From Flammula alnicola (lineage: Eukaryota; Basidiomycota; Agaricomycetes; Agaricales; Strophariaceae): a DNA stretch of 64,000 bases. The DNA lies in NCBI GenBank assembly GCA_015499995.1, contig JADNRV010000101.1, forward strand, positions 62,001 through 126,000, read 5' to 3'. Shown here piece by piece: positions 14,266 through 50,941 of this stretch; position 1 is the first letter of the stretch; every line of letters begins with the position of its first letter. Position numbers and translations under genes: made by a program. Under the pieces are notes generated by a model that was not told the origin of the DNA, made no database searches, and saw only the letters and a program-made list of their open reading frames with translations.

Positions 14266-15412
14266 ATGACGTCGACAGCCGACACTACTCAACCAATGTC
14301 GGGCAGCACAGAGGCGTCCAAACCGACAATTGTCGTTCACCATCTCGAAGACTCGCGCTCGCAACGCATTCTCTGGCTTTTGGTACGCTAGCCATTCCGT
14401 TGACCGTTTCAAAATCCAGCCTCACCCCTGTTCGTACCCCCTCATCTCCCGTAGGAAGAGCTGGAAGTTCCCTACGAAGTAAAGAAATACAAGAGGACAC
14501 CACAACGACTCGCTCCCAAAGAGCTTCTCGACGTGCACCCTTTGGGTAAATCGCCCGTTATTACGGACGGAGACGTGACTCTGGCAGAAAGTGGCGCCAT
14601 TGTAGGTGAGTAATTCGCGTTTGGCTTGCGCTTGCCAGTGATCATATCCGAGACTTACGAATTACCTTCTTCCGATGTAAGAGTACCTCATCGCGAAGCA
14701 TGGAGGAGCGAACCCAAAGGTCAACGAATCGGGATGGGTGGATAACCTATACTGTGCGTCTGTCCCTCTATTGCCACCAGTTTTGATTTGACTCACTCTG
14801 CTTCCCATGGGCAGTTACTCACTACGCGGAAGGCTCGTTACAACCTGTCCTCGTCCGCCGACTTCATTCAGGCTGATCCCACAGCGCTCGCCGGCGCTTA
14901 TCCGGCCTCTCGTCAAGCGTATTTTCACGAAGCTTGACGAGACTTTGAATGCTCCAGAGCTCGAGAGGCATGGGAAATTGGTACGCATCCTAAGATTATT
15001 TGAATGAGCCGCTGTAGTATCATGATGTGATGCTGACTTTCTTATGTCACCTCCGCCTTAGATCGAGTCTCATTTGGAGAAGACCCAAGGCTGGTTCGCA
15101 GGCGGAGAGCATCCTACCTCCGCAGACTACATGATGTCTTTCACTCTGGAAATACTCCTCAATCGCGCACCTGAATTTGCAGGCTCGAACGTCAAGGAAT
15201 ATGTGAAACGGATCCAGGACAGGTACGACCCTTCTTCTCGATCATTCACTGTATGCTGACCGTTTTCATGATACGTCGTAACGCTTCAGGCCAGCATATA
15301 AACGCGTGAGTACGATTAACTAAAATTACTTTGGTACAATATATACTAATTTTATGTCTAACTGAAATAGGCTCTCGAGAAGGGAGGTGAATACGCGTAT
15401 TTGATTAAGTAG
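14266..15412 (+). CDS. Glutathione S-transferase, GTT1-like, one apparent frameshift
   Basis: Cytosolic GST that conjugates glutathione to electrophiles. The thioredoxin-fold N-domain contains VVHHLEDSRSQRILWLL, then EELEVPYEVKKYKR, the cis-Pro glutathione-site segment HPLGKSPVITDG and LAESGAIVEYL. The C-terminal helical domain contains GWVDNLYFTHYAEGSLQPVL, SPALIRPLV and TQGWFAGGEHPTSADYMMSF. Closest to yeast Gtt1-type enzymes by the HPLGKSP and LAESG spacing. Introns lie at 14383-14454, 14606-14681, 14754-14814, 14981-15061, 15223-15289 and 15306-15370; the exon 15290-15305 is only 16 bp. One base seems missing near 14867 (TT, three expected), shifting the frame before LIPQRSPAL. Stop at 15410. 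It is convergent with the helical-domain gene at 15.3-16.5 kb, whose last exon may overlap it antisense. Confidence 0.85.
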
Positions 15413-16547
15413 AAGATAGCATAAACGTCTTTGGACCCCGTGCTCGAAGTCGTCATGGCCTGCAATATTATGCTTGAGTTTGACCGCGAATTGTCAGGAT
15501 AAGGAAGAAGACGTACTGGCCACCCCCCCAGCTCGCAAACGTACGATTGTTGTTATTGGAGATGGACACTTCGCCACCCACGAAATTCCCGCTACCCATG
15601 CTGAGTATCGGCCCAGAGGGCGATGGAGGCCGGTAGAAGGATGCGCCTTCGTAATAGCCTGGATACATGCCCGTTACTTGGGAAGCGTCGGGCGAGGAAG
15701 GTCCCGACAGGAAGGTTGTGACGCTGTCGGTATATCTGTGCACCGCTTGCGCTATGGTAGCATTCGGGATGCGTCCTTTGCCACCCGTACGTAGCTTACC
15801 GCTGTCCGTCAAATGTTCCGAAATCTCGCCTTGTTTCCTCAATACCTGCGACAGAAGGTCGTTTATAACTAGGTGAGATGAGACCTGTCCAGTTATTCTG
15901 TTAATTCACGCAATACAGAGAGGATTCAGAACAGACGAGCGTACCTCGAACTTTGTAACGCAAGCAGCCAACCGCTGGCGATATTCCTGGATCTTTCCTG
16001 TATCGCTTACGCTGAATAAAATCCGGAGGAACCAATTGCGAGACACTTGAACCTCGACAAAATGTTGAATCGAGTCCAAGGTCCTATGAATTGTCAGTAT
16101 CCTCCCGCTTGGGAGGAGGCGAGCCCTTACGACACTAGGTCATCAATGACATCTGCCAGCTCCGAAGGGGGCCAACGGTCCTTGTCGGAGGAGACTTGAT
16201 ATGACCGCCAGACAGCGGCTATAAGAGCAGCTGCGTCTTCGGCCAATTGACGAAACCCTGCTTTGTTGTCTTTGGCCGCCTGCCCAGAGGTATCAGCACG
16301 TCCGGTGGATACCCAAACTATCCAGGTAAATGTTGTAGTGCGTTTCACAGACCTGGACGGCCGCCATAATTTGCAACGTCGCCCCAGCGGCTTGCCTTAT
16401 ATATGGCACTGGCGCGACGCTTGCAGCTTCGTGAACAAGGGTGAGGAGCACAGTTCCACCTTGGAGTGAGGCATCCCGCCAGTCTATCGTCTGAGTCTTC
16501 TTTTCTTTGCGATTTTTCGTCGCTGTCGTTGTTAATTTAGGTGCCAT
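15326..16547 (-). CDS. MLKL-NTD-like helical protein with C-terminal Asn/Gly motif (copy A)
   Basis: Minus-strand gene. Exon 1 (16547-16353) encodes a Lys-rich start (MAPKLTTTATKNRKEKK) and the first helix, ending QAAGATLQIMAAVQ. Exon 2 (16279-16131) encodes FRQLAEDAAALIAAVWRSY and WPPSELADVIDDLV. Exon 3 (16083-15945) encodes SIQHFVEVQVSRNWFLRILF and the Q/R/K-rich end. Exon 4 (from 15884) encodes HLVINDLLSQVLRKQGEI, a Pro/Ser-rich linker and the terminal motif SMGSGNFVGGEVSISNNNN. A phase-1 donor right after the motif (AATCGTACGT) could join a short exon at about 15452-15326 beginning HDDFEH, antisense to the end of the GST; unspliced, the frame stops at 15468. The helical part resembles the MLKL-type N-terminal domain seen on Agaricomycete kinases and NLRs. 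Function is inferred: possibly membrane-acting effector with a self-assembly tail. Confidence 0.7.
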
Positions 16548-18545
16548 TGTGTGAGCGATAGAAGGGAAAAAGTGTTGGCCGCGGTTAAGCAAGCAACCAA
16601 AAACCACTCTTCACCGGAAAGCAGTTAACCGAGTCTAGAAAGGGCGTTGCGCTTTCGTAATAAACCTGTTGACAAATTTCGAAAGGGGCTGCAGGTTACC
16701 CTGTCCTTTAGAGTCCGTTTATTCGGCAGCTTCAGTGAATGCATACCCCCCATAAAGACCAAGTATTACCAAGCGTCGAGGTAACTGCACTTGAATAACA
16801 GCGGTAAATTCGTTACCCCACACAGGAGGAAGTGATTTTTTGTGCGATAGATATATTGGACTTCGAGTGTCGGAGTGTTGAATTATCCAAGTGGGAAGGC
16901 GGCAGAATATCTAAACGTAAAAGAACGGCAGTGGCGAGGTTGACACCATACTCTATTCTTTAAATCGTGGCCTTTTACGTCGCGCATGTACATATCGAGT
17001 TTGAGGACAAGCCTCGACGAACTGCACTGAAACGTGCCATTGTGCCAACCCGATTCCTCAAGGATTATGCGTGCCTTTTCTCAGACGGAAGTCAGTAAGA
17101 GCACCCATCTGCATCGTGCTTCGGTCGTGGGGGTCAGCATAACAACCGTTGAAATTGACTGGCTCATGTATCATGATACAGCTTCCTGTGTTCGAACCTG
17201 CTCGAGACGTGCTCTCGACCTGTAAGGTTGCAAAGGTTGAGGGCATGGAAAAACGGGAATTGGAAATTCTGTCGCTCCATGGGCCCGAATATGCGCGCGA
17301 AATCTTGCTCATTATCTGTGCTGTTCAAATCCAAATAATACTCCGCCCATAAATTTGAAACATCTCTCAGCAAGCATGAGTATAACTTAATTCACCAGCA
17401 CTGTGGATTTATTAAATCCACGATCGAAACAAGGAGATACTTTGTACCAAGCTCTGGATGGCATGGGTGGGTGCGGGGCGCTCTACATAACTTCCTGAGT
17501 ATCGAATACTATCGTGCAAATCTGTCGAGAAACCCTCTAATACTCTCAGCTTTGATAAAATAACTATTTCCCCTACATTCAGTACTCGCCTGTACTAGGC
17601 CGCGCCAATAGGCAGGACCTACTACATCAATATCTTAGAATTGTTGCGCTCAACACATCGTGACCTTCTCCTCTCTTCTACGATAAATTAGCCCCCTTGT
17701 GTCAATTCTGTGTTTTATTGCGGCTACTATGATTAGAATTTGCATATTGGAGCCTTTTGAAAAGGACCTTTACTCTCTAAGTTGCCCGCGCAGGCCCACT
17801 TTTTCTAGGCCAACCTTTCGCCATCATTTACGCTGAGAGAAATCCAATTCTGTCATCATGGTCAATGACGCTCACGCCATCTGTCCATACCCAATACGGG
17901 CTCGGGCCATTCAAAAGCACTGGAGTAGCTATGTTTCCAGTCCTCTTTTGTCTTTAGGCTGCCCTTGGTAATAGGCGAGGCATATAAGTCATGGAAGGTG
18001 AGTTGATGCTGATAGAATTCCGCTTCTTCTTCCACTCAAATTGAAACCAATAAGTTTGGGTTTACAGTATATTTAGATTTAAGTAATGTTTGGTACATCT
18101 GTCATACAATCTCTCCCTAAAATAGTAATTGTTACCTATTCTGGAGCTCCTACCTACTTTTCAAACAAAAATGGTCCCAAAAAATTAAATTGAGGTCTTC
18201 ATCATGCTACTAAATTAAAAACAAAACAAAACAGATGATTCAAAGTGGTGAAATATATGCTTATATAATATATTGGCGCGAGTCCAAACGAAAATGACCG
18301 TCACAAATTGTAGTTTACTATCGAACATTCCCATGTGATGATGCCCAGCTATGAACGTTCAGAATTTCAATTAAGAGTGAGAGATGTTCGGACTTCGAAA
18401 ATGCCTCAGAGTTCGAAATTTAAGGCAGTGCGGTACGTTGTACCCAATGGACGTCCAAATCAATGTCCATATTGGTACCCAGACTAATTGCCGAGAGTAT
18501 GCCGAGGCATACGTATGCTTATAACGTTAGACGGAGAATCTCCGG
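16548..18545. other. Intergenic; right end of a segmental duplication to about 16720
   Basis: 16548-16720 is the upstream region of copy A and has an inverted homologue at 35690-35868. From 16.7 to 18.5 kb there is no supported gene; it becomes AT-rich from 18.0 to 18.35 kb. Open frames at 17034-17373 overlap on both strands and show no domain. Confidence 0.45.
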
Positions 18546-19944: not shown

Positions 19945-21450
19945 TCACGTTTGGCCGCCGACTTGAAGAATAGTTGAGCTCCAAAAAAGAGTCAAGGAAC
20001 GATAGGACTTACAGTGTCTGTTGCCGTTATCCTTTATGTTCACGGCACCGCGGATGACATTTCTGTCGCCCATGCGGAGTATTGCTGTACCCTGAGGGCG
20101 TGGGTAGAGGTTATGAGGAAAGGGCATTATGTGGGATGGAAAGGGATGCATAGGATTTCCACCTTGGAGTGGGAATTGTCCTGCGAGCGCTGAATGCTGC
20201 TGGGCAACGGAAGGTCCTATGGGATAGCCGTGCTGAAGGGGCGCCGACTCCTCATTTGCGGGCAGGGACTGTGAGCTTCTTGGTATTGCGCTTGGTGTCG
20301 CGGGGCTATGTTGCAATGGAGTCTCAAATGTACTCGTTACCTGGCCCTCCATCGACGGCTGAGGTTGTGGTTGTTTGGGGCTTTCATTCGCCTGCGCGAG
20401 TGTGAATTGAGACAACATCCTGGCCAAAGCTACACTGGGCAATATAGGATGTTCCTGGACCGTTGGTGCTGCTACCTGCTCTGCGGCTTGGGTTTGCGAA
20501 ACGTGCTCAACCTTTGTCTCGCCGACATCAACGTGGCCAGCATCACTTCCACCCTCTACTGTTCGCTGTTGAACGCGCCCAGTCCGAGAACCTTCCTCCT
20601 GCTTTGAATGCTATACATTAGTGCAGATGGACGTCATCACGCTCATGGTGACGGTGGACGTACATTGTTTCCCAAATTTCCATCCATCTGAGCCTTCTCG
20701 GCCGTAGAGTCACGCATTTTATTCTTGTCTGCCGGCTGCACGGTGGGCTCCTGTCTTCCCTGCGCCTTTGAGGGGGTTTTCGGCTTGACTACAGCTTTCA
20801 ATTGCTCGGTGATCGTGGTTGTCTTGCTCAATAACTGCGAGAAATAGACACTGTCAGGTTGGCAGACAAAACGAAATGGACCGAGAACATACCTCAAATG
20901 TCGACCGTACGTCGCCCAGACTCTTCTTTAGGTCTTCAAGGGCTTTCGTCGAAGTATCCGGGTTTCGAATCGTGTTGCTCTTCAGAAACTTGTTTCTGGG
21001 GACCTTCGTCAACGACTGGATAGCTTTCGACGCTCTATCAACAAAATGTCAATGCTTGACTCACGGTCGGATCTTATTTGTGAGGAATTCCTCACTCCTC
21101 GAGCTTGACGATGATAGGCCTGACCCCCGACACAGAGGCCTTGTCCGAGCGCCAGATCCCAGCGATGAGGTCAGCTACATCGACTACGAACGGGTGGATA
21201 TCTTCCCTGTCCTGAACAACGATCCAAGGAGTTGAATCAGGGCCGTCATACGTTGCAGTGCTATTTTTCATACCTTCGCGCCTTCCACAATCTCCAAGAT
21301 TGTCTTCGCCGCAGCCTTCAGACGAGACGGTTTATCTACCTGCTTAAGGAGCGCAAGGTTGGTGATGTGACCTTCTGCGGCGCCTTGAGGATTGCCGACC
21401 ATGTCTTCGGCATGGGTGTTGGGTGGATTTCCATTGCGCTTTGGAGCCAT
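19945..21450 (-). CDS. Helical/motif family member with long P/Q linker (copy C)
   Basis: Start ATG at 21450 (MAPKRNGNPPNTHAEDMVGN). Exon 1 ends with an amphipathic helix (LKAAAKTILEIVEGAK). The next exon encodes VVDVADLIAGIWRSD and the following one SIQSLTKVPRNKFLKS and LEDLKKSLGDVRSTFE. Intron positions match those of copies A and D-I. The fourth region starts LLSKTTTITEQLK and continues as a linker of about 250 residues rich in Pro, Gln, Ser and Glu. It ends with the motif RMGDRNVIRGAVNIKDNGN. A donor-like GTAAGT directly follows the motif; unspliced, the frame runs to 19945. The linker is far longer than in E or G. The domain call is by similarity to the other members here and to the MLKL-type helical domain of Agaricomycetes; the function is inferred. 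Confidence 0.65.
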
Positions 21451-21669
21451 TGGACGTGAGCGATCCATCGAAGAAAGGTGTGATTTAAATAACTTTACCA
21501 ATGAGGTCTGCGCGAGGCATGAAGACTAATTGAAGTGCAGAACGCAGGTCGTTTCTATGCACGAGGATTTTGACGAATGGGAACTTGACACCCCCTCGAG
21601 TTCATAACACTGCATTTTTGTGGGAAGACTCTGCTTCTCAGCATTCTTTCCCCCCTTGTTCTTTGTTTT

Positions 21670-25307: not shown

Positions 25308-26688
25308 ATGAAACCTCTAACCAAAAAACTTGCAGGGGGTCACTCCAAATCAACAAAGTTCGATCTTGCGGTTCCTGCAGCCGAGGGTCGCGCTATTGTC
25401 CGATATCTTGTCCAACGAGGCCCGGATGCATCTCTACCGGTATATGTGAAGAAGCTCGCTTCCACGACTTTGGAAATTGGAACTGGTGCTGAAGTACGGT
25501 CTAAGGCGCAATACGGCAAACACGAATCGAGATCTTGTCAAGACACTGATATTGCTCTGTAGGCAGTGAAAGGCAGGAACTCCTGTGACTTTCAACATCT
25601 AGCGGACGACGCGAGTAGAGTCGTTGCCACACTCTGGTACTCTTCTCAGACGTCGTCTCGTCTCGAGGCCTGGCCTTCTCCAGAACTTATGCATATTGCA
25701 GAGGATCTGTCGTTGTAAGTCCTCGAATTTCAAGTGGATTTAATGTTGTCAACCCGGCTTTGCTTCCAGAACAGTAGACGATGTGCGACTCTTCGTCGAT
25801 GAAAAGTTATCTGCCAAGACAGCAGGTGGCATATTTCGGACCATGGCGGAATCTAGGAGGATCAAAAATTACCGTCATAGGTTGCACGCCATTATTTCCA
25901 CACTTCAAGTAAGTTGCATTTCCCGTAAAATTATAGTCAAACGTGCTGATTGAAGAGACTCAGGAGAATAACAAAATGCCATCTGACTTCAGTATCATTA
26001 ACGTCCCGGCCAAAGACAGTGAGCACGAAGATTCTGCAATGCAGCTTGGACGCCTCCGTTCAGCACAGAAAGGAGCCGGATGCGACGACAACCTGCTTGG
26101 AGATGAGATGGACACGGAATACCGACCCCAGAATCCCAAAATGAAACGCTGGCAGGCGACAGATGTGCAGCAGGAAGGCAGCGTGGATGTGAGATCTGCA
26201 GCTAACAGGTATAAACTTAGGGAGATGGCCTATTTCGCCAACAAAGTACGTCCTCCTCACAAATGTATAGTATAACCAAAATTCTAAGAAGCTCACTAGA
26301 CGAGCATCCGCGAACCGCAAGGCAACATTACCTCTCATGCCAGCTCGGCGGCACAACAAACTACGCTGAAACAGAGTTCACGACAACCACAATATTCGAA
26401 GGCTTCGGCCTGTCAGCACATGACCCCTTCGTCCGAGTCTTCGGACGCTTTCACTGCATCGCGGCTTCGGCAAAATCTCTATACTGATTATCTTTACCAC
26501 CCTCCCGTTGTCGGTCCTCGTAATTCTGGAACGTTCCTCAACATTGGGAATAACAATTCCCTGAGTGGAAATATTAGCATTTCTGATAGCAATAATCAAA
26601 TCCAAGAAATCCACTGTAAGTTGCTTTTTTCTTTCATTTTTTTTCTTAACGCTATATTTTTCCCATTTTAGATCCTCTCTACGGGTAA
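25308..26688 (+). CDS. Helical/motif family member (copy D)
   Basis: Start ATG at 25308. Exon 1 ends in TTLEIGTGAE. After an intron ending TGTAG at about 25563, exon 2 encodes FQHLADDASRVVATLWYSS and WPSPELMHIAEDLS. Exon 3 encodes TVDDVRLFVDEKLSAKTAGG and IKNYRHRLHAIISTLQ. Exon 4 starts SNVLIEETQENNK and is acidic. After another intron the Gln/Ser-rich exon SSAAQQTTLKQSSRQPQYSK follows, ending in the motif NIGNNNSLSGNISISDSNN. A final intron (donor CACTGTAAGT, acceptor 26671) gives a terminal HYPLYG and stop at 26686. Same exon plan as copies A, C and E-I. It lacks the basic MAPK-type start. Function inferred only. Confidence 0.65.
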
Positions 26689-27681
26689 CATTGGGTATCA
26701 GAAGGTTCTCCTTGGTGTCGTAACAGGGTGCGCGTGATGTATACTGCGAGTCCTCAAAATTAGTAGCCAGCGCCCCACATTCTGGCGTATCAACATTAAG
26801 TATATCCGTACCCATCGTTGAATTACCAGGATATCCTGTCGATTATTTGAGCACAGCAATGATAAGAGAAAGATCCTTAGAAAGGGTCGGATCTGGGCAT
26901 CTGCTCATATAAATGCGCAGGTTTGCATGATGTGAGCTGTGAAATGACTGCTGGGAACTATCGATGATCGATCCACCACGCGGAGGAACACGAGGACATA
27001 GAAGGAAGATGTAAGCTGCTAAACACATTTCCCGGGATCCGTAGCAGGAAAGGGAACATAGAGGAATTCCACTTACAGGTATATCTGTCCCGCTAACGAA
27101 GCGCCCGTGCTCCAAGTTGGAGTGCAGTTGTGTGTGCGTTTTGACATAGCACATTGGATTCAGTCAGACATTTGTATTGAATTCTTCGATCTTGCTGAAG
27201 TCATGTATCATCGATATTTAAATAGACGGTGAACAATTGGTTCATATTCATACTCGCAGACCAATCTGAAAGCTCATGACAACTGTATAGGAGCACGTCA
27301 AATTACCTGCTAAGCTAGCCGCAAACCACTCGAGGCGCCCAGAGCAGGGCCACGGGTTAGATATATGGAGTGAGAAATGACGTGAGATGTACGCCAGGCA
27401 GCCAAGGACTACGCGAACATCGGTATTCTGGCTCAGGGATGTGCCCGTTACGGAATTGGACAGGGAGAAATGTTCCATCCTTAAATGGCAAAAGCTCGAA
27501 TTAATATCGATCCTACTTGTATTTTCCATAAAGGGTAAAATGGCGGGCAGATGGCGTGTAACGAGCTGTGTTTCTCGTGGTACCCGCGAGTCGTTGTAAG
27601 GGTTCTTAGACCATCTCAGTACCGTATAAATTTAATGTGACAGTCCCTCAGGCCACCAGTATCTCTTCCAACTTCTGCTAA
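26689..27681. other. Intergenic, no supported gene
   Basis: About 1 kb between copies D and E with only short overlapping frames and no recognisable domain. The final 60 bases before 27682 are the leader of copy E. Confidence 0.4.
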
Positions 27682-28546
27682 ATGGCTACCACTGCCCAAG
27701 GGGTCACCGAAACGGAGCAAGCAGCTGGGCCTAGCAACTCACGCCCAGACGAACCCAGTCACCTAACTGCTGTCAAAGCTGCTGCAAACGCTCAATATCA
27801 GCCCCTACGGCAGACGTCGAAGACATTACTGAGAATAGTCAGTGTCTTTCAGGTAAGCATTCAAGCAGAATACGATACAGAGAGTCTTTGAACCGGTGAT
27901 GCATCTCTTTAGGTCGCAAAGATCAAAGGCAACAACGAGAAACTCATTCACGAGACCGGCCATCTTATATCCAGACTCTGGGGCTTGTATCAGGAATCTC
28001 CAGACCGGGGAATCTGGCCACCTCCAGCGCTCAAGGGCGTGATTATGAACATGGAAACGTAGGCACTTCTTTCTGAGGAGGCCGTTGTAGCTATTCATAT
28101 TTTAACAGAACCGTGATGGCCATGGCAAGCGACTTAATCGAGGACAAGGCAGGCGTTTCGATGGCACCTCGCTTTCACAGCCTCGCCGACCTCAACAAGG
28201 TCAAGAAATATCGAGAAGATGTCGAGCGACTGTCGACCAATTTATCGGCATACCTTGTACGTCTCTTCTAGTTCTCATCCACAAATATTTCAAAACTCAC
28301 TGAACGCTTTAGGAGAAAGCTGTAACAGTGACCCAGGTGACGGAATCTAGAAATCCGCCAATTCTCCCATCTGATATCCCGTACGCCTTCCCTATGCAGC
28401 CGGTCGCAGCGTACGGGGAAATCCTCTTCAACTCGTCCAGCTTTGAACAGTTTGGATCTGGAGAAGTCCTCAGAATGGGAGATGACAATGAAATCGGTGG
28501 GCCAGTGGACATATCGAACAACAACAACATTAAGTACCTACCCTAA
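27682..28546 (+). CDS. Helical/motif family member, compact form (copy E)
   Basis: Four clean exons: 27682-27852, 27913-28058, 28109-28256 and 28313-28546. Exon 1 has an acidic Ser/Pro start and the helix PLRQTSKTLLRIVSVFQ. Exon 2 has LIHETGHLISRLWGLYQESP and WPPPALKGVIMNM. Exon 3 has TVMAMASDLIEDK and LNKVKKYREDVERLSTNLSA. Exon 4 has a short linker of about 45 residues and ends in RMGDDNEIGGPVDISNNNN just before the stop. The protein is about 233 residues, close in size to the HeLo domain of HET-S. It is the simplest and cleanest copy for defining the architecture. A donor-like AAGTACCT overlaps the last codons, so a small extra exon is possible. Confidence 0.75.
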
Positions 28547-29587: not shown

Positions 29588-30745
29588 ATGGGGTCCAAGT
29601 CAACGAATAAATCCAAGAAACACGTCAATGGGATAGAACCTCGCGGGGTGGATTGGCAAGACGCTAGTATTGAAGGTGCAGCTCTTGTCCTTGGGTTTGT
29701 TCGAGGCGCTGCAGATGCTACCCAACTGCCATTCCTGGCACAAGCGGCTGGAGCGACGTTGCGCATTCTTGTAATGGTGCAGGTATGTATTGTTTCATAA
29801 TCTGAGGTCGACGGTTAGTATGTCATCAAGTCCTCTAGGCAGTCAAAGCCAATAAAGTTAGATTTCAGCGATTGGCAGACGATACAGCTGCGTTCATCGC
29901 TGTCATCTGGCGTTCTTATAGGTCATCTTCTGATGAAGAATGTTGGCCGCGTCCGGAGATGAAGGATGCTCTTGAGGACCTTGAACAGTGAGTAATCGGT
30001 ACACAACATCGATAGCTACTCATCTATATTCATATAATAGAACTGTGATGGCCATACATGAATTTGTACAGGCACAAGCGTCAAGGAGCAAGGTTATTCG
30101 CATCCTATTCAGCGTGTCGGACGTGGGGAAGATTGAAGAGTATCGCGAGAGATTAGGGACTTGCATTTCGAAATTCGAGGTATGTAAGTCGGAACATAAC
30201 TTCTACCTGTTTAGGCTCATAAGAGTATCAAGGTATCATCCCACCTCGTCATCAACGATGTTCTATCTCAAATATTAAAGAAACAAGATCAAATTGCGGA
30301 GCAACTTAGGCCACGTGTGAACTTGACTACAGGGATAAACCAACTGTCGACGATCTACACGGCACCAGTGGGCGAGAAGGAAGGAGAGCAAGTCTTAGCG
30401 CCTGAATCCATCCTTACAGGACCTGCGTCCCCTCAGAGCGCTCAACAACAGAGTTTAGAGGCGATTCATGTTCCCTATTGGCTCCAATACCCGATTTACC
30501 CTGGGTCACTTCCTCTGTCTCAAATGACAGGCGCGTATCTCACCCGCTACGGGCAACGTTCCCTCTCCAGTCACCCCGCGCCATTTATCAGCATAGGTAA
30601 TGACAACGTCATCTCGGGGAATATGCATATCGCCAATAACCATAATTCTGACTACGGCTGTGGGTGGTCTTGCTCTCAATTATACATTTTCTATTCACTG
30701 ATCCAGAGTTTGCCAGTGATGAGTGTGAGCGAAAAGAACCATTGA
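29588..30745 (+). CDS. Helical/motif family member (copy F)
   Basis: Exons 29588-29782, 29839-29987, 30042-30179 and 30215-30745. The start is basic (MGSKSTNKSKKH), followed by VDWQDASIEGAALVLGFVRG and QAAGATLRILVMVQ. Exon 2 has FQRLADDTAAFIAVIWRSY and WPRPEMKDALEDLEQ. Exon 3 has TVMAIHEFVQAQASRSKVIR and KIEEYRERLGTCISKFE. Exon 4 has HLVINDVLSQILKKQDQIAE, a linker of about 100 residues rich in Pro/Gln/Ser, and SIGNDNVISGNMHIANNHN, followed by about 29 residues. In sequence it is closest to copies A, H and I, with the same intron positions and phases. It appears intact. The best full-length reference for the group with the Lys-rich start. Confidence 0.75.
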
Positions 30746-31509: not shown

Positions 31510-32294
31510 ATGGCGAACCACGGCGGCGCAGCCACCTACCCTACGAACTTTGGCCAAGGTGAAATGGATGCCGTTCAGGTCGCTCAAGCTATTGTAGAAT
31601 ATTCTCCTAGCCAACCGCTTAAGGATGCGGCTCAGCAGATATTGAAGCTTTTCGGAGATTCGCAGGTGTGTCTGTATTATATCTAAAGTACGAATTACCG
31701 CGTCAAGTGAAATCGCTAATTAATTTATCGCTACAGGAGAACAAGGGCGGTTTCAAAAGACTGGTTGACGAAGGCGGCGCTCTACTTGCCATTATTTGGC
31801 TGAAATACTTCGTACAGCCGGACAAACCTATTTGGCAGACTTCAGAAGTACAGAGTCTAATTATCAGTGTGAAACGGTGGGCATATTTATGAGCAAGAAA
31901 ATGCGGTAACTGAAGTGTAACCAGAGCATTGGATGCCATCGCATCGGACTGCGCTGAGGCAAATGTGGGAAGACCAACGACGTACACCACCGAGACCTAT
32001 CTAGCACAATTCGTAAAACTCGCGTCCGCCATCGCTGAAGTAAGTACATAAATTCTGCAAGGTTAATCGCGATTCTTTGAGCTACCGATTGCCCATTAGA
32101 CACCTGTGGTACCCCCGCGCCAGTCAGGGCAAGGGACCGATGCGTTACATGGGCCCAGTTCAATTGTACGCCTTGGGAACGGCAATAAAATACTCAGCTC
32201 GCTCACGGTGAAAAATAACAATAACGCCACACTGGCATATCCAAAATGTGCGTTGTCTCCCTGTTTTAGCTTACGCCCTATTAAATTTTGTTAA
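31510..32294 (+). CDS. Helical/motif family member, short (copy G)
   Basis: Start ATG at 31510. Exon 1 (to 31665) has VAQAIVEYSPSQPLKDAAQQ and ILKLFGDSQ. Exon 2 (31737-31876) has FKRLVDEGGALLAIIWLKYF. Exon 3 (31925-32039) has ALDAIASDCAEANVG and YLAQFVKLASAIAE. Exon 4 (from 32100) has a short linker of about 20 residues and the motif RLGNGNKILSSLTVKNNNN, followed by a few residues; a donor-like GTGCGT lies shortly after the motif. The exon that carries the LLSQVLRKQ helix in A, F, H and I is missing, so the helical part is shorter. The motif lacks the central Gly (SS in its place). It may be a derived or partly decayed member. Confidence 0.65.
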
Positions 32295-35868: not shown

Positions 35869-37134
35869 ATGGCACCTAAATCAACAACGATGGCGACGAA
35901 AAATCACAAAGAAAAGAAGACTCAGACGACTAACTGGCGGGATGCATCACTTCTAGGGGGAACCGTGCTCCTCACCCTTCACGAAGCCGCAAATGTTGCG
36001 CCGCAGCGCCAGTGCCATATATAAGACAAGCGGCAGGGGCAACATTGCAGATTATCGTGGCGACCCAGGTCTGTGGAACGCAGTAAAATATTTATCTGCA
36101 TAGTTTGGGTATCCACTCGACATGCTGATACATCTGTGCAGGCGGCCAAAGGCAACAAAGCAGCGTTTCGTCAATTGGCTAAAGACGCAGCTTTTCTTAT
36201 AGCCGCTTTCTGGAAGTCGTATCAAGTCTCCTCCAACAAAGACCGTTGGCCGCCTTCGGAGCTGGCAGATGTCATGGACGATCTTGTGTCGTAAGAGCTC
36301 GTCTCACCTCAAGCGGGAGGATACTGACACCGTCATAGGACCTTGGACTCGATTCAACATTTTGTCGAGGTTCAAGTGTCTCGCAATTGGTTCCTCCAAA
36401 TTTTATTCAGCGTAAGCGAAGCAAGAAATATTCAAGGATATCGCCAGCGGTTGGACGCTTGCATTACAAAGTTCGAGGTATGCTTGTTTACCTGAATCCT
36501 TTCCGCGTTGCGTGAATTAACAAAATAACTGGACAGGTCTCATCTCGTCTAGTTATAAATGACCTTCTGTCGCAGGTATTGAGGAAACAAGGCGAGATTT
36601 CGGAACATTTAACGGACAGCGGTAAGCTACGTACGGTTGGCAAAAAGATCGCATCTCCGAATGCTACCATAGCGCAAGCGGGTGCACAGAATATACCAAC
36701 AGCATCACAAGCCCTGATTCGTCCTCCGCATCCCAGCCAACTCTCTTCCTATGGATCGGGACCTTCCTCGCCCCAAGCATCCCAGGTAACGGGCATGTAT
36801 CCAGACTATTACGAGGACACATCCTTCTACCGGCCTCCATCGCCCTCGGGGGCGATACTCAGCATGGGTAGCAGGAATTGCATCGGTGGTGAATTGTCCA
36901 TCTCCAATCACAACAATCGTACGTTTGCGAGCTGGCGTGGCCAGTACGTCTTCTTCCTTTTCCTAGCTATTCGCGGTCAAACTTAAGGATAATATTGCAG
37001 ACCATGATGACTTCGAGCACCGGCTCCAACGACATTTGTTCTATCTTCTATTTAATCAAATACGCATATTCGCCTCCCTTCTTGAGAACCTATTCCAGTT
37101 AGATGTAGAATTAGTATATGCTGTACCAGGTTAA
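35869..37134 (+). pseudogene. Helical/motif family copy H, exon 1 frameshifted
   Basis: Close paralogue of copy A. Exon 1 starts MAPKSTTMATKNHKEKK but has lost one codon after LLTL. It also carries an 8-bp insertion at about 36001-36008 (CCGCAGCG), which ends the frame at a TAA just beyond. Exons 2-4 remain open: FRQLAKDAAFLIAAFWKSY, SIQHFVEVQVSRNWFLQILF and HLTDSGKLRTVGKK, a Pro/Ser linker, then SMGSRNCIGGELSISNHNN. As in copy A, a phase-1 donor follows the motif and a downstream exon (acceptor TTGCAG near 37002) begins HDDFEH and stops at 37132. The insertion looks real rather than a base-calling slip, because it is 8 bp and not in a homopolymer. Confidence 0.7.
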
Positions 37135-38238: not shown

Positions 38239-39735
38239 CTAGTGGGGCGCGGGTATCCCTTGCAAAGGCCCCGCCTTGGTCACAGTAGTCGGCACCACCG
38301 TCGTCGGTACAACAGTAGTAGGCACCACCGTTGTCGGAACGACAATAGTAGGCACCACCGTCGTAGGCTTAACAGTGGTGGGCGCCACCGTCGTCGGAAC
38401 AACAGTAGTAGGCACCACCGTGGTCGGCTTCACGGTGGTAGGCGCCACAGTCGTTGGGGGGATGACCACCGGCTCGTTGAGATAGACCGAGAGCCTGCTC
38501 GCTGCACCGCAGAGCTCCGTATGGTCCGCCTCGCACGCGCGCGAGCAATCAGTGAGCGGGGCGGTGGTGTTGGCGACGAGGAAGGAGGAGCCGCACCCTG
38601 TTCGTGAGGGAGCGTTAGTCATGGAAAGACAGAAAATAGGGAGAAAAGAAAAACACTCACAGCACTCCTGGCCGAACTCCAACCCGGTGATATTAAAGCC
38701 AGTAGCCTCGCACTGCGCCGTGCAGCTCTCGATGGTCACACCCTCAGCGATGTCAAACCTCTCAAGCAAGGTACGGCCGTTCCCGTCGATAGCGTCACTG
38801 TCAAAGTTGAAAGCCGGAGTCAGCACCGTCATCAAAATCAAAATCAATATCATTGTCAGTCAACGACTCGTCCACGGTCAAGTGCGCCAACCTCAATACG
38901 CAATCGAGACTAGACAGTACTCACGTGAAACACCCATCAAACACCCAGGTCCCCACCTGGGCTTTATTCGTAGGCACAGGTCCCACGCCCTCGTTCAAGT
39001 TCTGGAAAATGCTGATCGCACCGGCGCCGCCACAGGTGAGGGTGTCATCACCGCCGCAGGGGAAGTCGCAGGCGTCGTCGGTGAGCTGGGTGGCGGTGCC
39101 TTGGATGTTGAAGTCACAGACTGTGATAAGGGGGGAGGTATGAACGTGTTAGAGTGAGAAGGGAAGAATGGAAGGAAAGACATACAGCACTCGGAAGTAA
39201 ACTCCGTCCCCGCAAAGTTGAATGGAGACGGGAAGTCGGTGCCGGAGCAGAAGGAAGTGCAGAGCGAGGGCGTCATGTTAGCGTTGACGACGGTCGCTTC
39301 GAGTAGAGTGCGCGAAGCGGGGTTGTTGTCACTGGACGAGGAGAAGGAGGGTGGGGTTAGTCTGGGTCGAGAGAGAGAGTGGGACGTGGTTGAAAGAGTG
39401 GCGTAGTCGACATGTAAAGTAGATGGAAGATGTACGTGGTATGTGTACGCAGAAAAACGCGACATATAGAAAGGGAAGGTAAGCGATTGCACTCACGAGA
39501 AGCAACCGACAAAGGTCCACCCAGCGAGGGGACCATTGGGGTCGGTCCCGTTTTGTCTCCTCGACAGTTGGACGGACGAGGATGGTAAGGCGAAAACTGC
39601 CTATAGAAAGATGAGTATCCGTTACATGGCACGAATCGCATCCCAGACGCGTACACGACGCGTCGACAGAGTAGAAAGAGAGAGACGTACGGGAAGAACA
39701 GCAAGCATCGCAAAGAGGGCCGTCAAAGAAGACAT
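38239..39735 (-). CDS. Secreted two-WSC-domain protein with Thr/Pro tail (copy 1)
   Basis: Six exons on the minus strand: 39735-39691, 39600-39497, 39331-39186, 39120-38925, 38797-38661 and 38597-38239. Signal peptide MSSLTALFAMLAVLPAVFA is followed by a Kex2-like SRRQ. WSC domain 1 runs from GWTFVGCFSDN to the FNIQGTATQLTDDACDFPCG part and GGAGAISIFQN. WSC domain 2 starts GTWVFDGCFTDAIDG, with ESCTAQCEATGFNITGLEFG and ECWCGSSFL. The tail is 12 units of P-T-T-V-x. WSC domains are Cys-rich carbohydrate-binding modules of wall sensors and secreted enzymes. There is no transmembrane segment after the tail, so it is more likely wall-bound or secreted than a yeast-type Wsc sensor. Divergent from its duplicate at 43.5 kb. 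Confidence 0.88.
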
Positions 39736-43390: not shown

Positions 43391-43478
43391 GTCGTGAGTT
43401 GGGGGTGGTTCGATATCCTCTTGGTGCTTGCCTTTCAACCAAGCTTTGGGATACTCTACAGGAAAAAGTTGAGCAGAT

Positions 43479-45168
43479 ATGTCTTCTTTCGTGACCCTCT
43501 TTGCGACGCTTGCTATTCTCCCCGTACGTTTTGTCTCTTTTTTCTGGCCCTCTTGACGCGTCGTGTGGGCGTCGGGGATGTGGTTCGCCGTTCTTGTGCT
43601 TACTCTATCTTTGCTTGTCGACAGGCGGTCTTCGCGCTCCCATCCTCGCCCGTCCAGTTGTCGAGGAGACAAAACGGCACCAACCCCAATGATGCCCTCC
43701 CTGGGTGGACCTTTGTCGGTTGTTTCTCGTGAGTGCAAACTCTTACTCTCTCCATCCATCGCTTGCCTTTCCATTTTTCGCTTTATTTTACGTATGCAAC
43801 ACGCCCTGCTATCTACATAATTTCTCAACCTTTTCCACTGTCTGACCATGTACGCACGTCGTTCGTGCTTTTATTTTATCTGCTGCTTCAAAGTTCTTTG
43901 CAACGCCAAATAACTCTTCCCGTGTTGTTCCTCGACGAGCACTATCCCACCCCATACCTTACTTGTACCCTCTTCCTCTTTCATCTGCAAAACCATCTCT
44001 AACTCACCGTCATCTCCATCTTCTCCGTCTCTTCTCTCTCAACCCCACTAACTTCTTCCTCTTTTCCTACAGGGACAATAACCCCGCTTCGCGCACCCTT
44101 CTCGAAGCGAACGTCGACAATGCTGCCATGACGCCCGCCCTCTGCACCGCCTTCTGCTCCGGCACCGACTTCCCGTCTCCGTTCAACTTTGCGGGGACGG
44201 AGTTTACTTCGCAGTGTTGTATGTCTTTCCTTCTCTCCCTCCCCATTCCTCCGTTCTCTCTCTCTAACACGTTCATACCTTTATCACAGTCTGCGATTTC
44301 AACATCCAAGGCACCGCTACCCAGCTCGCCGACGACGCCTGCGACTTCCCCTGCGGCGGTGACGACACACTCACCTGTGGTGGTGCTGGCGCGGTCAGCA
44401 TTTTCCAGAACTTGAACGAGGGTGTGGGGCCGGTGCCTACGAATAAAGCCCAGGTGGGGACCTGGGTGTTTGATGGGTGTTTCACGTGAGTACTGTCTAC
44501 TCTCGATTGCGTTTTGAGGTTGGTGCACTTGGCCGTGGACGACTCGTTGATATTGATATTGATTTTGATTTTGATGATGGTGCTGACTTTGGTGCTTGAC
44601 AGTGACGCTATCGACGGGAATGGTCGTACCCTGCTTGAGAGGTTTGACATCGCTGCGGGTGTGACCATCGAGAGCTGCACGGCGCAGTGCGAGGCTACTG
44701 GCTTTAATATCACCGGGTTGGAATTTGGCCAGGAGTGCTGTCAGTATTTTTTTCTCCCTCTTCTTTATTTGTTTCTTTCGTCCGATGACTAACGCTCCCT
44801 CACGAACAGGGTGCGGCTCCTCCTTCCTCGTCGCCAACACCACCGCTCCGCTCACTGACTGCTCGCGCGCGTGCGAGGCGGACCATACGGAGCTCTGCGG
44901 TGCAGCGAGCAGGCTCTCGGTCTATCTCAATGAGCCAGTGGTTGTTCCCCCAACGACCGTCGCACCTACCACTGTTAAGCCTACGACGGTGGTGCCTACT
45001 ACTATCGTTCCGACGACGGTGTTGCCTACAACTGTCGTTCCGACGACGGTGGTGCCTACCACCGTTAAGCCTACCACGGTGGTGCCTACTACTGTCGTTC
45101 CGACAACGGTGGTGCCGACTACTGTGACCAAGGCGGGGCCTTTGCAGGGGATACCCGCGCCCCACTAG
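43479..45168 (+). CDS. Secreted two-WSC-domain protein with Thr/Pro tail (copy 2)
   Basis: Exons 43479-43523, 43625-43728, 44073-44218, 44290-44485, 44603-44739 and 44810-45168, with the same lengths and phases as copy 1. Signal peptide MSSFVTLFATLAILPAVFA, then SRRQ. WSC domain 1 has GWTFVGCFSDNN; WSC domain 2 has GTWVFDGCFTDAIDG and ECWCGSSFL. The tail has 12 P-T-T-V-x units, the same number as copy 1, with a few I/L changes. The exons are nearly identical to copy 1 while intron 2 is 179 bp longer, which suggests gene conversion or selection on the exons. Downstream of the stop the strand still spells a short Thr/Pro reading (TTTVVPTTTKAA, stop about 45218), so the tail may once have been longer or may be alternatively spliced. 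Confidence 0.88.
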
Positions 45169-46250: not shown

Positions 46251-47184
46251 TTTCTCACCAAACTTTATTGACAGTCAGCTGCGTGACTTAAAATCCTAGC
46301 TTGAGATGTAATTTTGTATATTTATGGTCTATATATTGGTAGCACTAACTTAATACAAGGTACTTGTTAAGTAAAGGCACACAGAGGGCGGCAAGAGCAG
46401 CAGTCGGGCGGGTGCAGCATGTAGCCGGCTGCAGGTGGGCCAAGCCAACTTACTGTGCAAGCGAGGTCGTAGAGAAGTCAATAAGATACTGCTTACCAAG
46501 TTCTCGGTGGCGAATTTGATACGCGCAGCCTAAAGAAAGAGGCACTTCATGCGTGTTACGTCGTCATCGTTGTCGTTGGGCAAAGTGAAAGGCTAAAGCT
46601 GCCTTGAGGTATTTACTTCCGTCATCTAACTGGTCGCTCGTCTTGTCCAGATCGTACCGTGTCAAGCGCACGATACCCATATCGAAGAGCGCGATTTTGC
46701 GGCGATCATTGGGCAGCGTACTTAAAAAAAAAGGAGGATTTTCTCAAATGCACTGGGAGACTTTGTGAGACGATACGACTCGAAGTTTGCATGGTAGACA
46801 AATCACATTTCCTTCAACAGCTGGAGAAGGCCAATCAGGCTGACCATAGGAAGCTGGGGCTCGGATATGCGTCGAGCAGGGTACGCTGTCGCGTCGCACG
46901 CAATTGCAAGAGGCAAGCAAGAATAATTCGACGGTGAGTCGCGGCGCTGGCATCTGTTTATGGGCATGCACAGCCTCTGATCCTATCTAATCTAATCTAG
47001 CCGAGGATCTCTGCGAGACCACTACTACACCGCGAAGTAGGGAATGGGTAGCAAACTGTATGTTAGCACGACTGCCAGGGTCCAGGGGCTTGCCCTCGTC
47101 TACATTACCCGAGTCAGTACCGACTCTTCGTGGTAGAGAGAGCTTCTCAACTCACTAATGTGGGGTCGAGTCCTCATCCCGAGA
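46251..47184. other. Intergenic, no supported gene
   Basis: A frame of 92 codons at 46659-46937 is Arg/Lys-rich without a domain. Nothing else is visible. Confidence 0.35.
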
Positions 47185-49465
47185 TCAAAGAGTTGCCGCA
47201 TTGCTACCCCGAGACCAGAGATTTGTTGTATTGCTATTCCCCGACCAAAAAGTCGTCGAGATCGCTAAACTGTTATTGTTGGTAGAGTCCACGTTTGTTG
47301 TATGTTGACTCTGGTCAAACACATAGTTCCCTTGTATGATGTTGAACGCCCCTCCATTGATCAGAATGTTCTGGGAGTGTTGGAAGAAAGATACAGCTTG
47401 CGTAGAACGTGGGACAGAACCATTAGATTCCTCAACCCTGCTCTCCTCGGTCGCAGACGCATTGGAGTTAAAAGAGGTGCTAGCGGTTGAATATTCACCA
47501 CCAGTCAGCACGGCCGGGGTCGGTTCCGTGGTTGCAACTGTTGCACTGTGGAGAGGGCCTTTCGGTGTCAAACAAGCAACACCTGTAAAAGATAACGCAC
47601 GCCAAGCCAAGAAATTGAGGCTTTCAAACCTGTAAACGAACGCACCATCTGCCTCACTGACCTCATGCGTCGTCATTATACGTGTTAAAATTTCGTCCGA
47701 AGCAGGAAGAGATAAATCATCCTAAAAAATAAAAAGTCTCAGAGCCTGAAATTCCATTCCATGGATCAAGATCCCTTACCTGTTTGAGAACCGAAATCCA
47801 ATCCCTATCATTTGTTATAGCGATCCGTGCATCCGGTTTCTGTTCCGATGCAAAATGTATGAATGACTTGGTTATATTAGATTCAACCATTAAAAAGACT
47901 GACCGATTGTAACAGGAAATTGTTGATGAATGTCGACGGATGAATCCTCTACAAGATATTATTCTCAGTTTTTCCAAAAGGCGACGGTCAGTACGAAGCT
48001 GAAGTTCGCACCAGAGCTGAAGTGGTACCAGAAATCTGAGCAATGCCTGTACTGGGGGAATTGCTCCCGGCATTGTATCCGTTGTGGCCTCTGTGAGGCG
48101 GAGGGGATCGTCCACTTGAGGCGCTGGCTGAATTGTCCGAAGGATTAGGGTTACCACAGATATAATGGATGTCCGGGGTGACGTTAATGTCTGTTCCGGT
48201 GCGAATTGAAGACCCCCTAAGTTCAGATTCTAATTTTTCCCAGCCGTCTTTTTGGAGTGTCGTATTTAGCGTGCGCACGAATAGAGATTGGTTCTCGAAA
48301 GCATGTATTTCCTGCGATTCGTCGCCCGCCCTCAGTTCCTCTATTTCCCGACGACCCGGTCCTGATCTGGCCGAGTCTGCCATGCCACTATAGTCCCAAG
48401 TGTATATCCTTCCAACGCTGCTGTCTTGTTTTGGCTTAAACCGCATTTTCAATGGGCAGTTTGTCTCGTGGGTCGCTTTGGCAGATGTGGCCATACCCCA
48501 AGCCCGAGATTTGTCGACACCAACGACAAGACGCAAATCGCCATTCTTGACTTGCCGTCCACGGATCCCAGTGGCATACTTATACCAATTTACTATATTC
48601 AGTTCGAGGTATTGTGTGAATCTAGCCGTGTTCGCTAGGTCCACAGTATATGCACCTTCCGGCATCGTCAGTATAGCACCCTCACGAGCGGACGCTATGA
48701 AGGTTATTCCGCTGTTTGCAAGAGTCTTAGGAAGATTTCGAGTGATGGGCAAAACAGAGTGACGTTCGCTGGACCACCATCATTGATATCTTTTGTAATC
48801 GATTCACTCGACAGATGGGTGTCTTCTCCGAGTTCTTGCTGGCCTTGGATGTCGTGCGCAGGGATTAGTGGAGGATTGAGCGCAGAGAACCCTTCAGGCA
48901 CACCACCCGCGTTAATAGGATCATCTTGAGGGAGGCAAATATTGAACAAAAAGTCGAAGGCTCCACGTGGAGTTATGATACCGACATCACCAATGTCGAT
49001 ACCGCGCCTTCGATATGAGATGTCGAGAAAATGATTTGGCTCTGGTATCCACAAGGGTGAGCCACGGCCCTTTGCAGATAGGTGTCGGTAGTAAATATCC
49101 GAACTCTTCTGAACTGGGATTCTTATCGGTAAGCCAACATTTGTTTCAACCGGGATCGTTGTCGATATGTCTGAAATTTCTTGAACGAGCATTGGTGCTG
49201 GTGTTTGGACGGCTTGGAGAGACCTGCGGAATCCAAGAGCCTGAAAAATTCTTCGTACGCCTCTGACGAGAGGAGATTCAACTCGTTGAGGGGCACGATC
49301 GCCTTGCGATCGCCTAAGGACCGCCAACTTTGAACTACTATTTTTTCAGAGTTGGATGAAAGGCTTACCTTGAGGTGCATCCTCTGAAACACGAGAATGT
49401 CGTGACCTATGCTGGCTGACTCTAGAGAAGGGGGCAGGTTGAGAGGGGCTCGTACTGGATGCCAT
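47185..49465 (-). CDS. Conserved Agaricomycete protein of unknown function (PLWIPEPN family)
   Basis: Minus strand from ATG 49465 (MASSTSPSQPAPFSRVSQHR). Exon 1 ends at 49369. The core reads YYRHLSAKGRGSPLWIPEPN, ISYRRRGIDIGDVGIITPRG and AFDFLFNICLPQDDPIN. It then gives FIASAREGAILTMPEGAY, WYKYATGIRGRQVKNGDLRL and VVGVDKSRAWGMA, and DARIAITNDRDWISVL nearer the end. This order is common in Agaricomycetes but has no assigned function. The C-terminal exon carries SFFQHSQNILINGGAFNIIQ GNY, a Gly/Asn-spaced beta-like motif often found at the start of Agaricomycete NLR proteins. I could not resolve two junctions (near 49330 and near 48740), so the frame may be disturbed there. Fragments of this gene recur at 51.5-52.1 and 61.3-61.7 kb. 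Confidence 0.6.
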
Positions 49466-49737
49466 TATATAAAATACTCTGAAATCAATACGTGATCGCT
49501 ACCCGTCAATTATCAGACTTATATGGAAGGACCCCTAGTCAAGTCGCCAGTCAATTTGACTTATGACTTGACCCTCGATGACTCGGACTGGCTGGTTGTG
49601 ACCAGTCAATGACTGGCACATCACTGCCTGGGGGACGAAGATAAATATACCTAAGTATAGTAGGTACTCATATGCGACTGAAGTCTGTAAAAAAAATCGA
49701 GCTGAACGAAGACACAAGGAAAGAGCCTGAAATGACG

Positions 49738-50941
49738 TACATTTGTGTCTGTGGTTGTTATTCGATGTCGTCACAGCACCGTGGATGGCATTTCTGTCGC
49801 CAGTGCTGACGACTGCAGCACACTGAGGGTGGAATGGGACGTAGTGATTGTTGTGGGGAACACATACGTATGATTGTTATTGTTGGAGATGGACACTTCG
49901 CCACCCATGAAATTCCCGCTACCCATGCTGAGTATCGCCCCGGAGGGCGATGGAGGCCAGAAGGATTGCCCCTCGTAATAGTCTGGATACATCCCCATTA
50001 CCTGGAATGAGTCGTGCGAGGGAGGTTCCGATCCGTAGGAAGAGAGGTGGCTGCGATGTGGAGGATAAAGCGGGGCTTGTGACGCTATCGGTATATTCTG
50101 TGCACCCGCTTGCGGTGTGGTAGTATTCGGTGATGCGGTCTTTTTGCCGTCCGTTTGAGCGCCATACACGTCTGGCGTACGTAGCTTACCGCCGTCCATC
50201 AAACAATCCGAAATCTCGCCTTGTTTCCTCAATACCTGCGACAGAATGTCGTTTATAACTAGATGAGATGAGACCTTGTCCGCTCATTGTTAATTCACAA
50301 AATGCGTAGAGGATTCAGAGTATACGAACATACCTCAAACTTTCTGATGCAAGCAGCCAACCGCTGGCGATATTCTTGGATCTTTCCTGCATCGCTTACG
50401 CTGAACAAAATTCGGAGGAACCGATTGCGAGATACTTGAACCTCGACAAAATGTTGAATCGAGTCCAAGGTCCTATGGGATTATGAGTATCTTCTCGCTC
50501 GGGGTGAGACGAGCTCTTACGACACAAGGTCGTCCATGACATCTGTAAGCTCCGAAGGGGGCCAACGGTCCTTGTTTGAGGAGACTTGATATGACCGCCA
50601 GAAAGCGGCTATAAGAAAAGCTGCGTCTTCGGCCAACTGATGAAATTCTGTTTTGTTGCCTGTGGCCGCCTGCCCAGATAGATGTATCAGCATGTAGAGC
50701 GGATACTCAAACTATCCAGCTAAATATTGTGCTGCATTTCACAGACCTGGATCGCCACGATAATCTGCAACGTTGCCCCAGCGGCTTGTCTTATATATGG
50801 CGCTGGCGTGACACTTGCGGCTTCGTGAACAAGGGTGAGGAGCACTGTTCCACCTTGGAGTGATGCCTCCCGCCAGTCTGCGGTCTGAGTCTTCTTTTCT
50901 TTGCGACTTTTTGTCGCTGTCGTTGTTAATTTAGGTTCCAT
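49738..50941 (-). CDS. Helical/motif family member with two terminal motifs (copy I)
   Basis: Start ATG 50941 (MEPKLTTTATKSRKEKK). The body follows copy A closely: WREASLQGGTVLLTLVHEAA, QAAGATLQIIVAIQ, then exon 2 and exon 3 equivalents (50.68-50.52, 50.47-50.34 kb). The last long exon runs from about 50270 with a Pro/Ser linker and SMGSGNFMGGEVSISNNNN. Read through, that frame stops at 49771. Directly beyond, in another frame, 49813-49751 encodes a second motif-like stretch, STGDRNAIHGAVTTSNNNH, close in DNA to the motif of copy C. The family donor after motif 1 (CGTACGT) has changed to CATACGT here, so the second motif may no longer be spliced on. The promoter matches that of copy F. Confidence 0.7.

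What the first reader, a model, noticed from the sequence alone, without database searches (positions are those of the whole stretch)
15326..50941. Local family of helical-domain genes ending in one shared Asn/Gly motif: candidate amyloid-signalling effector system
Copies A-I share a four-exon plan: helix 1; LADD(A/T)A-LIA-IWRSY plus WPP-EL; a SRN-RILF/KIQEYR exon; then a linker and terminal motif. The helical part resembles the MLKL-type domain of Agaricomycete kinases and NLRs. A membrane-active helical bundle followed by a disordered linker and one short C-terminal beta motif is the plan of HET-S/HELLP. No kinase or NTPase domain is attached, so these would be stand-alone effectors. Seen: architecture and repeats. 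Known: HET-S and MLKL biology. Inferred: cell-death or allorecognition role.
Basis: partly seen in the sequence, partly recalled or inferred. Interest (0 to 1): 0.92.

Follow-up and report, generated by a model that had tools for sequence, protein, structure and literature searches.

The report
Tandem MLKL-like genes with shared tail
This stretch of a mushroom genome holds a tandem family of small genes whose proteins are predicted to fold like MLKL, the protein that bursts cells in animal necroptosis, and which end in one shared asparagine/glycine motif that likely lets them clump together and would trigger cell death, although no partner receptor carrying that motif was found.

Summary
Between 15.3 and 50.9 kb lie eight MLKL-like genes or relics (A-H), each followed by a 26-residue motif, SGxILSMGxxNxIxGxVxISNNNN; G8 and N11 are invariant in 10 of 10 instances. 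The genome is Flammula alnicola (Agaricales), and public gene models of A and E join the exons. Two AlphaFold2 models (E and paralogue P0003) give an extra N-terminal helix plus a four-helix bundle whose best solved matches are MLKL domains. MLKL_N is the only Pfam hit of E, below its cut-off. A second cluster (contig C38) and one relative each in Galerina and Cyclocybe end in a related motif. Between those three genera motif and bundle stay conserved while linker and last residues drift; within the window the picture is mixed. Amyloid assembly is inferred: PP, RHIM and HRAM signatures are absent, and six motif queries of the genome found no receptor, though these queries are insensitive and only 31 of 87 NACHT loci could be scanned. 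B is decayed; G is broken differently on each haplotype. I read this as a new variant of stand-alone basidiomycete MLKL-like effectors whose tail likely drives seeded assembly; the trigger is unknown.

The parts
15471..16547 (-). Copy A: exons 16547-16353, 16279-16133, 16082-15945, 15884-15471; 299 aa, equals P0002 of Flammula alnicola
15540..15617 (-). Copy A terminal motif SGPILSMGSGNFVGGEVSISNNNNRT
19945..21190 (-). Copy B: decayed; motif and long last exon kept, helical exons only as remnants (21190-21131)
20014..20091 (-). Copy B terminal motif GTAILRMGDRNVIRGAVNIKDNGNRH
25308..26690 (+). Copy C: exons 25308-25493, 25563-25712, 25771-25908, an extra long linker exon (about 25960-26245), a last long exon with the motif (from about 26302) and a short final exon; linker splices inferred by eye
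26525..26602 (+). Copy C terminal motif SGTFLNIGNNNSLSGNISISDSNNQI
27682..28546 (+). Copy D: diverged four-exon copy, reads to a stop shortly after the motif; splices by eye
28457..28534 (+). Copy D terminal motif SGEVLRMGDDNEIGGPVDISNNNNIK
29588..30658 (+). Copy E: exons 29588-29782, 29839-29985, 30042-30179, 30233-30655; the 319-aa model P0001 adds a short downstream tail (GLMSSNKRHADQVFTWS)
30575..30652 (+). Copy E terminal motif PAPFISIGNDNVISGNMHIANNHNSD
31510..32252 (+). Copy F: short diverged copy, only exon 2 recognised by profile, exon 3 shortened; limits approximate
32154..32231 (+). Copy F terminal motif PSSIVRLGNGNKILSSLTVKNNNNAT
35869..36986 (+). Copy G: exon 1 frame broken (about 35990-36010), exons 2-4 and motif open; the other haplotype's copy has exon 1 open but a stop just before the motif
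36846..36923 (+). Copy G terminal motif SGAILSMGSRNCIGGELSISNHNNRT
49858..50944 (-). Copy H: exons 50944-50747, 50669-50523, 50471-50334, 50274-49858 (open further downstream); no public protein model recovered
49867..49944 (-). Copy H terminal motif SGAILSMGSGNFMGGEVSISNNNNHT
49745..49822 (-). H2: second motif in another frame, 44 bp beyond the H motif, closest to that of B; relic of another copy or an alternative exon

Best explanation
These genes encode stand-alone proteins with an N-terminal bundle predicted to fold like the MLKL executioner domain, a linker predicted to be disordered and a shared 26-residue Asn/Gly C-terminal motif that likely stacks into a beta-arch amyloid-like assembly, whose seeding would cluster the bundles at a membrane and kill the cell. 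Shown: the genes, their exon plan, the motif, and no kinase or NTPase domain in the proteins scanned. Predicted: the fold. Inferred: that the motif self-assembles, that a seed (an unidentified receptor or another family member) starts it, that the clustered bundle permeabilises membranes, and that the tandem copies are diversified channels of one defence or non-self response.
Confidence: 0.48

Rival explanations
1. MLKL-like effectors whose tail is not amyloid: the motif is a folded or disordered docking tag that binds one cellular partner (receptor, chaperone or membrane protein), so conservation reflects a binding interface.
For: The motif lacks PP, RHIM and HRAM signatures; no second protein class with the motif was found in the genome; the related tail of P0003-P0005, NSGNVTNxxxSN..ND.S, is polar with few hydrophobic residues.
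Against: In the window copies the hydrophobic/Gly/Asn pattern is strict. PMC7885112 (passages) gives conserved N/Q and G, as ladders and as joints between short strands, as common to amyloid-forming domains.
Confidence: 0.28
2. A birth-and-death family now mostly decaying: the copies are relics of an older effector, with little present function in this strain.
For: B is decayed and G is broken on both haplotypes in different ways; H2 stands without a domain of its own; of the window's copies only A and E were recovered as public protein models, in capped searches; motif dN/dS exceeds 1 in two of six pairs.
Against: Bundle dN/dS is 0.20-0.40 in all six pairs among A, G, H and the other haplotype's G; relatives in two other genera keep bundle and tail.
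Confidence: 0.14
3. Conventional NLR-to-effector amyloid relay as in nwd2/het-S: a receptor with a matching N-terminal motif exists elsewhere in the genome but was missed. (A special case of the best explanation, so the odds overlap.)
For: At least 87 NACHT matches exist in the genome; PMC9815663 reports unlinked pairs in Moniliophthora and Fibularhizoctonia (section 28); my motif queries miss many known copies (one search found only E and its allele).
Against: Six motif queries found no receptor; 0 of 31 NACHT loci scanned carry the motif within the stretch held; 56 of 87 were not read.
Confidence: 0.25

Closest known systems
Stand-alone basidiomycete MLKL-like (BaMLKL) proteins, Wojciechowski et al. 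2022 (PMC9815663)
   Same: Predicted four-helix bundle of MLKL type with an extra N-terminal helix and a short helix between h3 and h4; no NOD attached; amyloid-like C-termini were reported for a few of 500 such proteins
   Different: Here a tandem array with one strictly patterned motif, and a related motif in other genera; the paper found its motifs also in NLRs of the same genome (26 short NACHT N-termini in M. roreri), here none was found. The paper's motif logos and supplementary alignments could not be read, so identity with one of its motifs is not excluded
HET-S / HELLP fungal amyloid effectors
   Same: Order of parts: membrane-type helical bundle, disordered linker, short C-terminal motif
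   Different: Motif has no PP core (NxGxQxGxN) and no HRAM spacing, no second repeat in the public models, and no adjacent NLR with the motif was found
Animal RIPK RHIM and MLKL
   Same: Bundle best matches MLKL executioner domains; motif has hydrophobic-x-hydrophobic-G (threonine allowed at the third place) in 10 of 10
   Different: The RHIM tetrad with its glutamine is absent in 10 of 10; bundle and motif sit in one protein and no pseudokinase follows

Membership tests
MLKL_NTD-like (BaMLKL) domain | Four-helix bundle of the MLKL executioner fold | tested here: met
MLKL_NTD-like (BaMLKL) domain | Extra N-terminal helix (hG) and short helix (hM) between h3 and h4 | tested here: met
   H28-43 and H132-137 in P0001, H32-48 and H137-143 in P0003, both predicted; feature described in PMC9815663 section 14
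MLKL_NTD-like (BaMLKL) domain | Recognised by an MLKL-family sequence profile | tested here: inconclusive
   Pfam PF22215: 18.8, 12.3 and 13.5 bits for P0001-P0003 against a cut-off of 27, so not reached; no hit for P0004, P0005. The published class rests on CDD MLKL_NTD and cluster profiles, which could not be run here
HET-S/HELLP amyloid effector | Bundle, disordered linker and C-terminal motif in one protein without NOD or kinase | tested here: met
   bundle and disorder are predictions
HET-S/HELLP amyloid effector | Motif of the PP class (NxGxQxGxN) | tested here: not met
   0 of 10 motif instances; signature from PMC9815663 passages
HET-S/HELLP amyloid effector | Motif of the HRAM class (hydrophobic at 3, 6, 8, 14 and G17 of a 21-residue frame) | tested here: not met
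   0 of 10 instances with flanks; features quoted in PMC5485727 passages
HET-S/HELLP amyloid effector | Partner NLR carrying the same motif at its N-terminus | tested here: inconclusive
   None in six motif queries or in 31 of 87 NACHT loci; 56 loci unread, queries insensitive
HET-S/HELLP amyloid effector | Amyloid or prion behaviour of the motif and cell death by the bundle | not testable with these tools
   needs experiments
RHIM | Core tetrad (V/I)-Q-(V/I/L/C)-G | tested here: not met
   0 of 10; tetrad from PMC9444067 passages

The most novel reading that the evidence does not exclude
A receptor-free, prion-type cell-death locus of mushrooms: a tandem array of MLKL-like executioners in which each copy's variant of a new Asn/Gly beta-arch motif is both sensor and trigger, so that cell fusion with a strain carrying a different set of variants, or an already converted seed, starts the killing without any NLR.
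Probability: 0.1. Interest if true: 0.88.

Novelty: new variant of a known kind. Interest (0 to 1): 0.6.

Why it matters
Whether mushrooms use amyloid signalling to fire MLKL-like killers is open. The 2022 survey (PMC9815663, section 28) found motif-like fragments in only a few of 500 stand-alone BaMLKL proteins. Here is a compact locus with several effector copies, one sharply patterned tail, relatives in Galerina and Cyclocybe with a related tail conserved, and contrasting haplotypes. It gives named peptides and genes for a direct test, and a motif profile with which receptors can be sought across Agaricales. It could also give a molecular handle on somatic incompatibility in basidiomycetes, whose models all rest on ascomycete work according to PMC8229728 (start of abstract in the listing).

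Tried and rejected
Rejected: membership of the PP, RHIM or HRAM motif classes. Rejected as support: the PDB profile hit of the motif to a UDP-GlcNAc acyltransferase (3t57, E 2.2); that such enzymes are left-handed beta-helices is recalled, and the hit shows at most that the spacing suits such a turn. Rejected: the NLR at C4:151.5 kb as an obvious partner; it has NPHP3_N/NACHT, WD40-like repeats by eye, and no motif in the 9.5 kb held. Rejected as evidence for balancing selection: the haplotypes differ at 4 positions over window 21.3-30.0 kb and then diverge from inside copy E to 88% at copy G, but eight pairs that I took as allelic among the 33 printed range from 94.5 to 99.95%, so background is too variable to judge. 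Uninformative: search of residues 523-562 of P0004 scored a single candidate, itself; a regular expression of my own for motifs of mushroom NLRs found nothing in the held frames, not even the motif at 47.3 kb; weak Pfam and NCBIfam hits outside MLKL_N and PDB sequence hits of the full alignment look like linker or chance matches; the helical part alone brought three unrelated PDB chains and no MLKL. Literature: 'BaMLKL' occurs only in PMC9815663 in the library. The listings show no title or abstract start about this motif; five papers were opened. 'Flammula alnicola' papers were seen as a listing only. No bioRxiv and few subscription papers are held, so absence from print is not established. 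On checking I corrected the H2 coordinates and several counts and added the substitution results that speak against the motif; for these I lowered the best explanation from 0.50 to 0.48 and raised two rivals by 0.01 each.

Full report
Source and setting. The window is bases 62001-126000 of contig C4 (200,419 bases) of a 74.4-Mb, 861-contig genome. Copy E, spliced by eye, is 100% identical over its length to a 319-aa 'hypothetical protein' of Flammula alnicola whose longest contig is 200,419 bases; a second such protein of 299 aa equals copy A. The window is therefore from this mushroom, and the exons are joined in public gene models. Those models are predictions; no transcript data were available.

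The copies. Exon queries and a profile of the helical part find recognisable exons for A (16.5-15.5 kb, minus), C (25.3-26.6, plus), D (27.7-28.5, plus), E (29.6-30.7, plus), F (31.5-32.3, plus), G (35.9-37.0, plus) and H (50.9-49.9, minus). B (21.2-19.9, minus) keeps its motif and only remnants of the domain. Four unbroken exons are clear in A, E and H. C has an additional linker exon. D and F are diverged; their bundles are 16-34% identical to those of the other copies compared. G's exon 1 is out of frame in the window. On the other haplotype (C103) the same exon is open but a stop stands right before the motif. A second motif, H2, lies 44 bp past that of H in another frame and resembles B's. 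Copy J lies outside the window at C4:140.9-141.9 kb, minus.

The motif. Ten instances (nine in the window plus J) line up without gaps over 26 positions. G8 and N11 are invariant. Positions 4, 5, 13 and 17 are hydrophobic in 10 of 10, positions 7 and 19 in 9 of 10, G15 in 9 of 10, and positions 21-24 are mostly Asn (one search aligned the nine of the window). With the whole sequence group of a copy left out of the profile, A, B, D, E, G, H and H2 are still found at iE 5.1e-4 or better; C (0.086, best non-copy 0.11) and F (0.11, best non-copy 0.079) do not stand out. In 20 resampled windows the best score was 12.3 bits.

Is it constrained? Between genera, yes. A profile search (7,998 candidates scored, a capped list) returned five proteins: P0001-P0003 of Flammula, P0004 of Galerina marginata and P0005 of Cyclocybe aegerita. 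I treat P0004 and P0005 as probable orthologues of P0003; no tree was made. Between the three the bundle is 57-60% identical, the linker 27-42%, the 23-residue tail motif 61-70% and the 13-14 last residues 0-29%. Their tail, NSGNVTNxxxSN..ND.S, is aligned with that of A next to a shared GMYPGYY; I read the two as one diverged motif family, which is an interpretation.

Within the window the picture is mixed. Among six copies (A, C, D, E, F, H) the motif is more alike than the bundle in 13 of 15 pairs, the two exceptions being A-E and E-H. Among A, G, H and the other haplotype's G, bundle dN/dS is 0.20-0.40 in six pairs and linker (with the helix that follows the bundle) 0.60-1.18. The motif ratio runs from 0.40 to 3.26 on 4-9 changes per pair. 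Motif dN (0.053-0.121) is below linker dN (0.160-0.279) in six of six pairs, but above bundle dN in five of six and above that of the residues after the motif in three of three. Against E, motif dN (0.556 and 0.562) is like that of the linker (0.619 and 0.527). So the bundle is clearly under purifying selection and the motif's constraint rests mainly on its strict pattern and on the other genera.

The second cluster. P0003 belongs to contig C38. There, three helical-domain genes are found by sequence match and two more by eye, all on the minus strand, with tails of the related motif in four and a different tail in one.

Receptor. Four queries with window-type motifs hit only C4 and C103 and two with the C38-type tail only C38 and C126. 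These queries are insensitive: one search found A, D, G and H but not B, C, E, F or H2, and one search found only E and its allele, although paralogues at 44-50% identity were reached. A receptor with a close motif in one exon should have been seen, a more diverged or split one not. A NACHT family search gave 87 matches, a lower bound. Thirty of their loci (1.5 kb flanks) and the one on C4 (L079, 9.5 kb) were scanned with the motif profile; none of the 31 carried it. The C4 receptor lies about 10 kb from copy J. MLKL_N itself matches four places in the genome outside this family, three over its cut-off; these were not read.

Haplotypes. C103 is taken as the other haplotype. It differs at 4 positions over window 21.3-30.0 kb, then more from inside copy E onwards (98.6-99.0%), through F (99.0 to 94.7%), to G (88%), with about 6.4 kb extra on C103 after F. 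Eight other contig pairs that I took as allelic, two of them overlapping, range from 94.5 to 99.95%. This fits a recombining, diversifying locus but does not show selection.

Mechanism. I take the copies as stand-alone executioners: bundle, flexible linker, assembling tail. By analogy with HET-S and HELLP (PMC7885112 and PMC5485727, passages), a seed would convert the tail into a stacked beta form, bring bundles together and let them attack a membrane. The seed is unknown. The motif is not PP, RHIM or HRAM by their published signatures, so membership in those motif classes is rejected, while the way of working remains the best guess. Rivals are a non-amyloid docking tail, a missed receptor relay and a decaying family.

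Literature seen: PMC9815663 outline, passages and sections 14, 20, 28; PMC12881547, PMC7885112, PMC9444067 and PMC5485727 passages only; PMC8229728 as a search listing. Table 1 of PMC9815663 lists seven motif ids from Agaricomycetes or groups within them (05, 08, 22, 29, 44, 17, 20) with no effector counterpart; their logos are figures and could not be read here.

Noticed in passing
window 47185-49327 (-): Another gene region holds a different Asn/Gly motif (NILINGGAFNIIQGNYVFDQSQH, at about 47.3 kb), which from memory resembles motifs at N-termini of mushroom NLRs; one of its open frames has a weak DUF642 match, and 47836-48113 is repeated at 51525-51802 at 87% identity.
   Followed up: partly
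window 60694-60747 (-): A remnant (GIGNVSNSVMSNTDNDISVK) close to the tail of P0003 on contig C38 (iE 0.035), near an acidic stretch: likely a relic of the second motif type inside the window.
   Followed up: partly
window 38239-39492 (-) and 43963-45168 (+): Mirror-image pair of gene regions with VPTT repeats (15-base DNA repeats); the minus-strand frame has a WSC domain, the plus-strand one is similar by eye but gave no Pfam hit.
   Followed up: partly
window 35869-36986 and L046 8894-9995: Copy G is broken on both haplotypes in opposite ways: exon 1 out of frame here with the motif kept, exon 1 open on C103 with a stop just before the motif.
   Followed up: yes
L047 1-10000 (C38:143001-153000): Second tandem cluster of stand-alone MLKL-like genes (three by sequence match, two more by eye), all minus strand, with tails such as NYNSGNTTNTVISDCNNN and one different tail (FSNITGAGISVGGGDVRVF).
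   Followed up: partly
window about 19421 (+) and 35347 (-): Two further short motif-like fragments (weak tblastn hits, such as VGGNVTIKGNGN and SATIIVDNNNNHTYG) without a helical domain; chance or relics.
   Followed up: no
window 12024-12446 (+): Tetraspanin-family open frame (PF00335, 35 bits over a cut-off of 32.1).
   Followed up: no
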